From Thermoflexales bacterium (GTDB lineage: Bacteria > Chloroflexota > Anaerolineae > B4-G1 > DUEL01), in the NCBI GenBank assembly GCA_014360895.1, contig JACIWQ010000025.1:1-33945 (forward strand): a DNA stretch of 33,945 nt. Direction: 5' to 3'. Positions 1,074 through 2,281 of the stretch are shown one piece after another (within the stretch, counting starts at the first letter, position 1; each line of letters starts with the position of its first letter). The position numbers and the translations under genes were made by a program. The notes under the pieces were generated by a model that was given only the letters and a program-made list of their open reading frames with translations, was not told the DNA's origin and ran no database searches.

Positions 1074-1121
1074 TGCCACTATGGTGGCACAAATTGTATC
1101 AGACCCTGGCATGAACGTCAA
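1074..1121 (-). promoter_or_regulatory. Promoter and operator-like inverted repeat for the toxin-antitoxin pair
   Basis: Minus-strand TTGACG (1116-1121), 17-bp spacer, TACAAT (1093-1098); inverted repeat TGCCAC-TATG-GTGGCA at 1074-1089 just downstream of the -10. Confidence 0.65.
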
Positions 1122-1858
1122 GCGTTGCGGCGGGCGATGGCGATGATGCGGCGGGCGAGGGGGGTGAGCGGCTCGCCGCTCCAGCCGCCGTAGACCGTCA
1201 CCCAGCGCAGGCCGACGGATTCTATCATCGCCTTCAGTTCGGTGGCGGTGTAGATGCGGACGTCAAACTCCATGCTCTGCCACTCACCGCCCTCCATCCA
1301 GCGCCAGGTCTCCCCGGTGCGGCCTGCCACCGGGTCCAGCCAGGGCTCCGCCAGGACAATCAGTTCGCCCGCCTCAAACCAGTGACGCTGGATGTCCATG
1401 CGGACCCGCCAGTCCCGGTTCATGACGTCTATCAGCAGTTGACCGCCGAGCTTGAGGGCGCGTCGGGCCCCCTCCAGGACGCGCAGGTTCTCCCGGTCGT
1501 CAGCGAAGAAGCCAAAGGAGGTGAAGACGCTGATGACGGCGTCAAACTCCTCGGTCCAGGGGATTTCCCGCATATCGCCCCGATGCCAGCGAATCTGGAC
1601 CCCGGCCTCCCGCGCCGCCGCGCGGGCCTGTCCCAGCAGGACCTCGCTGAGGTCCAGGCCGGTCACCTGGAAACCCCGCTGGGCCAGGGGGATGGCGATG
1701 CGGCCGTAGCCGCAGGCCAGGTCCAGCACCGACGCGCCGGGTTGAAGGCCCAGGTACGAGACGATGCCTTCCACCTGCTGTCGCGTCGCCTCGGGCGAGG
1801 CCAGCGGCCCGTAGATGCGCAGATACCGGTCGTCAAAGAACGTCTCCCACCAGGCCAT
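1118..1858 (-). CDS. Class I SAM-dependent methyltransferase
   Basis: VLDLACGYGRIAIPLAQRGFQVTGLDLS motif I/II; start re-assigned to ATG 1856-1858 after an AGGAGG-type SD. Confidence 0.85.
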   Translation of the reverse strand: MAWWETFFDDRYLRIYGPLASPEATRQQVEGIVSYLGLQPGASVLDLACGYGRIAIPLAQRGFQVTGLDLSEVLLGQARAAAREAGVQIRWHRGDMREIPWTEEFDAVISVFTSFGFFADDRENLRVLEGARRALKLGGQLLIDVMNRDWRVRMDIQRHWFEAGELIVLAEPWLDPVAGRTGETWRWMEGGEWQSMEFDVRIYTATELKAMIESVGLRWVTVYGGWSGEPLTPLARRIIAIARRNA

Positions 1859-1880
1859 GATGCCTCCTGTCGTGACGGGA

Positions 1881-1918
1881 AACAAAACGCCCCCTCCGTC
1901 CAGGGACGGAAGGGGCGC
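1881..1918 (-). terminator. T-box intrinsic terminator
   Basis: Minus strand GCGCCCCTTCCGTCC-CT-GGACGGAGGGGGCG followed by TTTTGTTT. Confidence 0.8.
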
Positions 1919-2247
1919 TCCGCGGTACCACCCTGGTTCGCTGGCGACGCCAGCGCGCTCGGTTCCCTCGCCCGCCCTCAGGCTGACCCTTAGGCGGCAA
2001 GGGCCTCCGCTGTAACGGGCGAACCCCGGGGAGACCTACTGCGGTGGGGGGCAACCGGTTCGGCCTCCCGACTCCCGGGCGACCTTCGGTCGGCGGCGCT
2101 GCAGGGGCTTGCAGCCGGTGACCCCTTTCTCTACCCGGCCCGTCGTACAGGCCCAACGGCCTGCGCGGTGGGTCGGTTCGCCAGGGCCGTCCCGACCTAC
2201 TCCTCCCGTTCTTCGTCTTTGCGGCGGGCAATGCCCGCTTAGATGTT
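1881..2247 (-). promoter_or_regulatory. T-box riboswitch leader (predicted valine specifier)
   Basis: Minus strand: T-box AGGGTGGTACCGCGG (1920-1934). Stem I specifier loop: AGTA (2198-2201) next to GGTCGG (2192-2197), which pairs with CCGACC (2088-2093), followed by GAA-G-GTC (2081-2087). Terminator hairpin and T-rich tail at 1881-1918. Confidence 0.88.
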
Positions 2248-2253
2248 GCTTTT

Positions 2254-2281
2254 ATTATACCGGTTCCAGGCCTTTTGTCAA
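2254..2281 (-). promoter_or_regulatory. Consensus sigma70-like promoter for the T-box transcript
   Basis: TTGACA (2276-2281), 16-bp spacer, TATAAT (2254-2259) on the minus strand. Confidence 0.85.

What the first reader, a model, noticed from the sequence alone, without database searches (positions are those of the whole stretch)
1118..2281. T-box tRNA-sensing leader controls a methyltransferase instead of an aminoacyl-tRNA synthetase
Seen directly: promoter TTGACA-16-TATAAT, Stem I specifier loop, AGGGTGGTACCGCGG T-box, terminator with T-run, then an SD and the ATG of a SAM methyltransferase. Known T-boxes (Rfam RF00230) usually control aminoacyl-tRNA synthetases or amino-acid biosynthesis/transport genes. 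A directly attached class I methyltransferase would be an unusual regulon member, or a leader stranded by rearrangement.
Basis: partly seen in the sequence, partly recalled or inferred. Interest (0 to 1): 0.85.

Follow-up and report, generated by a model that had tools for sequence, protein, structure and literature searches.

The report
Valine T-box heading methyltransferase–valS operon
The stretch is a genuine switch that senses uncharged valine tRNA; the gene right behind it is an uncharacterised methyltransferase, but the usual target, the valyl-tRNA synthetase gene, follows in the same operon in relatives and is missing here only because the sequenced contig stops, so the leader is ordinary and the recurring methyltransferase is the mildly new part.

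Summary
The leader is real. On the minus strand: a perfect TTGACA-16-TATAAT promoter, an RF00230 T-box (1899-2222, 45 bits, E 9e-9), specifier GUC (Val), AGGGTGGTACCGCGG, a terminator/antiterminator pair with compensatory changes, then SD and ATG of a class I methyltransferase (MT). "Instead of an aminoacyl-tRNA synthetase" is wrong. The window is a whole contig of a Thermoflexus-like Anaerolineae MAG and ends 245 bp past the operon's third gene. In six same-family genomes and eight metagenome contigs valS follows the MT, with T-box(GUC) upstream wherever the contig reaches it. In this genome valS lies 233 bp from the start of another contig; both ends carry repeats. Same-family genomes without the MT have the T-box directly on valS. 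So this is a valS T-box whose operon gained a leading MT. Less expected: homologous MTs (37-51% identity) recur in T-box operons of valS in two further family-level lineages, of leuS in one and of ileS in one, with matching specifiers, and do not form one clade. Nearest characterised relatives include N-methyltransferases acting on amino-acid-type amines (NmbA, CypM), but the bacillithiol gene bshC is absent here. A functional link between MT and branched-chain aminoacylation is plausible and untested.

The parts
2254..2281 (-). sigma-70-type promoter TTGACA-16-TATAAT
   Evidence: 12/12 consensus, 0.1 expected by chance; similar promoter sequences at the same place in G002, G008 and G009 (read from the sequences)
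1899..2222 (-). T-box leader (tRNA-sensing, transcription-attenuation type)
   Evidence: RF00230 full-length match 45.1 bits, E 9e-9
2081..2083 (-). specifier codon GUC (valine) in GAAG-GUC-GCCCGGGAG
   Evidence: read from sequence; the same 9-nt spacing to GGAG/GAG gives ACC for thrS, CUC for ilvE, UGG for trpB-type, UUC for pheS in this genome; GUC identical in all readable same-family leaders
1920..1934 (-). T-box sequence AGGGTGGTACCGCGG; UGGU bulge (1930-1927) fits discriminator A
   Evidence: sequence; the tRNA-Val(GAC) gene of this genome carries A after the acceptor stem
1885..1920 (-). intrinsic terminator hairpin, mutually exclusive with the antiterminator
   Evidence: 16-bp stem, terminator-like site found, covariation
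1863..1868 (-). Shine-Dalgarno AGGAGG
   Evidence: sequence, 4 nt before the ATG
1118..1858 (-). class I SAM-dependent methyltransferase, 246 aa, NmbA/CypM-like fold
   Evidence: Pfam; closest solved sequence 9ri2 NmbA, E 2.8e-28; AlphaFold model pLDDT 90.8, fold matches CypM and NmbA
735..1049 (-). HicB-type antitoxin-like gene
   Evidence: Pfam HicB, E 6e-5; same place in G005 and in L196, L197, L198, L199
246..734 (-). PIN-domain toxin-like gene
   Evidence: Pfam PIN, E 4e-12; in G005 it overlaps the valS start
1..245 (-). repeat-rich spacer and contig end, beyond which valS is expected (held as C81:234-2963 of the same assembly)

Best explanation
It is the tRNA-Val-sensing T-box leader of the valS operon. 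When uncharged tRNA-Val(GAC) accumulates, its anticodon pairs with the GUC specifier and its free ACCA end with the UGGU bulge, stabilising the antiterminator and preventing the terminator, so that polymerase reads into the methyltransferase, the HicB-PIN pair and valS. The methyltransferase was placed between leader and synthetase in an ancestor of this group and kept; the synthetase is off the window only because the assembly broke in a repeat. Shown here: leader, specifier, gene order in relatives, covariation. Inferred: readthrough to valS in this genome, tRNA binding, the function of the methyltransferase (probably N-methylation of an amino-acid-like amine, substrate unknown).
For: RF00230 match. 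T-box hits above the MT by cmscan in L009, L010, L012, L013, L014 and by motif in L008 and L011; specifier loop GAAGGTCGCC[CT]GGGAG in all seven same-family leaders long enough to show it. MT followed by valS in G001, G002, G003, G005, G008, G009 and in metagenome loci L195-L202, of which L196, L197, L199 have T-box(GUC)-MT-HicB-PIN-valS, the order of this window plus valS. Own valS at C81:234-2963, 233 bp from a contig start; no other T-box of Val type in this genome; both contig ends are repeat-rich and the PIN-valS spacer is repeat-filled in L196-L199 too. T-box directly on valS without MT in G007, G010, G011, G012, G018 and others. Antiterminator and terminator both conserved with changes on both sides.
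Against: The join C168-C81 was not observed in this assembly. A separate promoter for valS inside the operon or in the repeat spacer is not excluded. The leader scores below Rfam's gathering score. No expression data.
Confidence: 0.9

Rival explanations
1. The T-box controls only the methyltransferase (and the HicB-PIN pair) in this genome; valS has been separated from it by the repeat and has its own promoter.
For: The window ends before valS; a repeat-bearing spacer of roughly 190-340 bp lies between PIN and valS in relatives.
Against: Same order with valS in all near relatives with intact contigs; valS lies near a repeat-bearing contig end in this assembly; no T-box of its own in the 233 bp held upstream of valS.
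Confidence: 0.07
2. The leader is a relict stranded by rearrangement next to an unrelated gene.
For: The MT is absent in G007, where the T-box sits directly on valS, so the pairing is not universal.
Against: T-box plus MT conserved in seven further same-family genomes in three genera, down to 72% MT identity, with intact specifier, antiterminator and terminator.
Confidence: 0.02
3. On the separate question of what the methyltransferase does there: it is a chance passenger with no functional tie to valine or aminoacylation; it merely uses a good promoter, as the HicB-PIN pair and a nitronate monooxygenase-like gene (G008) do.
For: Other genes also enter the gap between MT and valS; 28 related MTs from the wider Chloroflexota search have no synthetase neighbour among those tested and no T-box motif.
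Against: Homologous MTs occur in T-box operons of valS in three family-level lineages, of leuS in one and of ileS in one, each with the matching specifier, and the tree does not put them in one clade.
Confidence: 0.55
4. The methyltransferase is a bacillithiol N-methyltransferase (NmbA).
For: Closest solved structure by sequence is NmbA, 30% identity over nearly the full length (PMC12719100).
Against: BshC is absent from this genome and from the T-box-MT genomes tested (G001-G005, G008, G009, G056). The related MTs that do sit beside bshC (G049, G051) branch apart from it.
Confidence: 0.04

Closest known systems
T-box riboswitch RF00230, valS class
   Same: Stem I with specifier loop, T-box sequence, antiterminator/terminator pair, Val specifier, valS in the operon in relatives
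   Different: GC-rich and divergent, scores below Rfam's cut-off; synthetase is not the first gene. [quoted passage not shown] 2008, PMC2494555)
NmbA, bacillithiol N-methyltransferase (PDB 9ri2, PMC12719100)
   Same: nearest solved sequence, same fold, similar length
   Different: no bacillithiol synthesis gene bshC in this genome; separate branch; different gene context
CypM, cypemycin N-terminal methyltransferase (PDB 7wzg)
   Same: fold, TM-score 0.80-0.83 to the model
   Different: 22-24% identity; no link to a peptide precursor was looked for or seen

Membership tests
T-box riboswitch (RF00230) | Covariance-model match over the full model | tested here: met
   45.1 bits, E 9e-9, positions 1-219 of 219; below the gathering score of 93, as are 4 of the 5 other T-boxes of this genome
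T-box riboswitch (RF00230) | Specifier codon in the Stem I loop matching the regulated amino acid | tested here: met
   GUC; valS downstream in relatives
T-box riboswitch (RF00230) | T-box bulge UGGN complementary to the discriminator base | tested here: met
   UGGU; tRNA-Val(GAC) discriminator A
T-box riboswitch (RF00230) | Mutually exclusive antiterminator and terminator | tested here: met
   shared strand, both conserved with changes on both sides in 16 leaders
T-box riboswitch (RF00230) | Binding of and response to uncharged tRNA | not testable with these tools
   needs in vitro antitermination or probing
Synthetase operon under the T-box | Cognate synthetase in the same operon in this genome | tested here: inconclusive
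   shown in relatives; contig break here
NmbA (bacillithiol N-methyltransferase) | Sequence and fold relationship | tested here: met
NmbA (bacillithiol N-methyltransferase) | Host makes bacillithiol (BshA, BshB, BshC) | tested here: not met
   no BshC in this genome or in same-family genomes; BshA and BshB not searched
NmbA (bacillithiol N-methyltransferase) | Activity on bacillithiol | not testable with these tools
   enzyme assay needed

The most novel reading that the evidence does not exclude
An NmbA-like N-methyltransferase is a dedicated accessory of branched-chain aminoacylation in Anaerolineae, induced with the synthetase by uncharged tRNA, for example neutralising a non-cognate amino acid or intermediate (such as those edited by ValRS, LeuRS and IleRS) or modifying the tRNA or the synthetase. 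Supporting pattern: T-box operons of valS, leuS and ileS in five lineages, neighbours of AlaX-type editing proteins in two lineages, and of metS in one.
Probability: 0.22. Interest if true: 0.68.

Novelty: new member of a known kind. Interest (0 to 1): 0.4.

Why it matters
It removes an apparent exception (a T-box regulating a methyltransferase alone) by showing a contig edge, a caution for reading regulons from fragmented MAGs. It also exposes a repeated, T-box-coregulated pairing of an uncharacterised methyltransferase with valS, leuS or ileS in Anaerolineae and metagenomes. If functional, this would be a new enzyme linked to branched-chain tRNA charging, and the pairing says which substrates to test first.

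Tried and rejected
Rfam at gathering score finds nothing; rejected as a refutation because most T-boxes of this genome fail that score. A recently deleted synthetase: rejected, valS is present on C81. NmbA function: judged unlikely on absence of BshC. Synthetase linkage outside Anaerolineae: none among 28 MT loci of the wider Chloroflexota search, judged by tblastn with valS, leuS, ileS and AlaX and by the T-box motif only, with about 1.5 kb flanks. Literature search for T-box with methyltransferase and valS gave only the 2008 survey as relevant; T-box with Chloroflexi gave nothing on this pairing. The literature library holds open-licence papers only, so absence there is weak.

Full report
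What is there. On the minus strand of the window, between an M16 peptidase gene (2327-3664) and a methyltransferase gene (1118-1858), lies a T-box leader. It has a consensus promoter, a full-length RF00230 match at 1899-2222 with 45.1 bits and E 9e-9, the sequence AGGGTGGTACCGCGG, a 16-bp terminator stem and an SD before the ATG. The default Rfam search reports nothing because the gathering score is 93; only one of six T-boxes of this genome reaches it.

Specificity. Reading the specifier as the codon followed by nine bases ending in GGAG or GAG gives ACC before thrS, CUC before ilvE, UGG before a trpB-type gene, UUC before pheS and AUC in an unattached leader of this genome, and GUC (valine) here. 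The UGGU bulge fits the discriminator A of the genome's tRNA-Val(GAC). Every same-family leader long enough to show it has GAAGGTCGCC[CT]GGGAG.

The missing synthetase. The window is the whole contig C168 of a 262-contig MAG related to Thermoflexus (title of L067). It ends 245 bp after the PIN gene. valS of this genome is C81:234-2963, 233 bp from that contig's start, and has no T-box in the part held. Both ends are repeat-rich. G004 shows the same break: MT at a contig end, valS 140 bp from another contig's start. In G001, G002, G003, G005, G008 and G009 valS lies downstream of the MT on the same strand; G005 has MT-HicB-PIN-valS. Eight metagenome loci (L195-L202) have MT-valS; seven of them still hold the T-box, all with GUC, and L196, L197 and L199 hold T-box-MT-HicB-PIN-valS. 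The PIN-valS spacer in these, roughly 190-340 bp, is filled with repeat-like sequence, which would explain the break.

History. G007 of the same genus has the T-box directly before valS with no MT, and so have G010, G011, G012 of the same family and G016, G018 and others of the order. So the leader belongs to valS, and the MT is an addition present in three genera of the family (or lost in some).

Mechanism. Antiterminator and terminator compete for one strand. In 16 leaders the antiterminator keeps 98.8% of its pairs with changes on both sides at two pairs, the terminator 95.5% with four, against 44-67% when partners are slid. The shuffles keep column make-up but not relatedness, so they are support, not proof. 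Antitermination by uncharged tRNA-Val is inferred from family membership, not measured.

The methyltransferase. 246 aa, class I fold, model pLDDT 90.8. The closest solved sequence is 9ri2, which is NmbA, the bacillithiol N-methyltransferase of Chlorobaculum tepidum (PMC12719100). Structure search puts CypM, NmbA, CcbJ and glycine/sarcosine N-methyltransferase among the best characterised matches, with some C-methyltransferases too. BshC is absent here and in the same-family genomes, so bacillithiol is not the likely substrate; two relatives, G049 and G051, have the related MT directly beside bshC. N-methylation of an amino-acid-like amine is an inference from these neighbours.

Recurrence. In family f22 (G131, G191, G104; G154 up to a contig end) and f15 (G097) a 40-45% identical MT lies between a Val T-box and valS; in f10 (G056, G092) a 37-41% identical one lies between a CUC (Leu) T-box and leuS. 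In metagenome contig L204 an Ile T-box (AUC) is followed by GNAT, AlaX-like, RNase H-like, MT (51%), Fic and ileS genes on one strand (the GNAT, RNase H and Fic names are read by eye). In f51 the MT follows an AlaX-like gene, in L207 a metS-like gene. The tree does not unite the linked MTs: f1, f22, f15 and f10 are separated by unlinked ones, though a single old origin with losses is not excluded. No formal background rate was computed: only some synthetases were used as queries, flanks were often 1.5 kb, and the loci were chosen by similarity to this MT.

Verdict. "Instead of a synthetase" does not: it is a valS T-box operon led by a methyltransferase, cut by the contig end. The recurring methyltransferase is a lead worth a test.

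Noticed in passing
L015:2267-2630 and L148:2263-2615 (G056, G092): A complete tRNA gene (tRNA-Ala GGC in L015) lies inside the leuS T-box leader, between the Stem I part and the antiterminator, with a second tRNA (Ala CGC in L015) just upstream. Processing of the embedded tRNA would cut the sensor from the switch.
   Followed up: partly
own genome C201:7886-8157 (-): An Ile T-box (AUC) with 104.5 bits is followed by a convergent gene; ileS of this genome lies at C201:8-3304, about 4.6 kb away with other genes between. This looks like a genuinely stranded leader.
   Followed up: partly
L204:4273-9724: Ile T-box operon with GNAT, AlaX-like, RNase H-like, methyltransferase, Fic and ileS genes, behind a 23S rRNA gene with two group I introns.
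   Followed up: partly
L130, L157 (G212, G180): Homologous methyltransferase directly after an AlaX-like (alanyl-tRNA editing) gene.
   Followed up: no
window:246-1049: HicB-PIN pair between the MT and the contig end; in G008 a nitronate monooxygenase-like gene sits at that place, in G002 and G009 nothing.
   Followed up: partly
own genome C12:124-275 and C12:1020-1343: Tandem tRNA-Ala CGC/GGC genes upstream of a Leu T-box with ilvE first and leuS further downstream, perhaps related to the tRNA-bearing leuS leaders of G056 and G092.
   Followed up: no
window:5089-8790: 1233-aa protein with two HKD-like (phospholipase D type) motifs, seen by eye in the translation.
   Followed up: no
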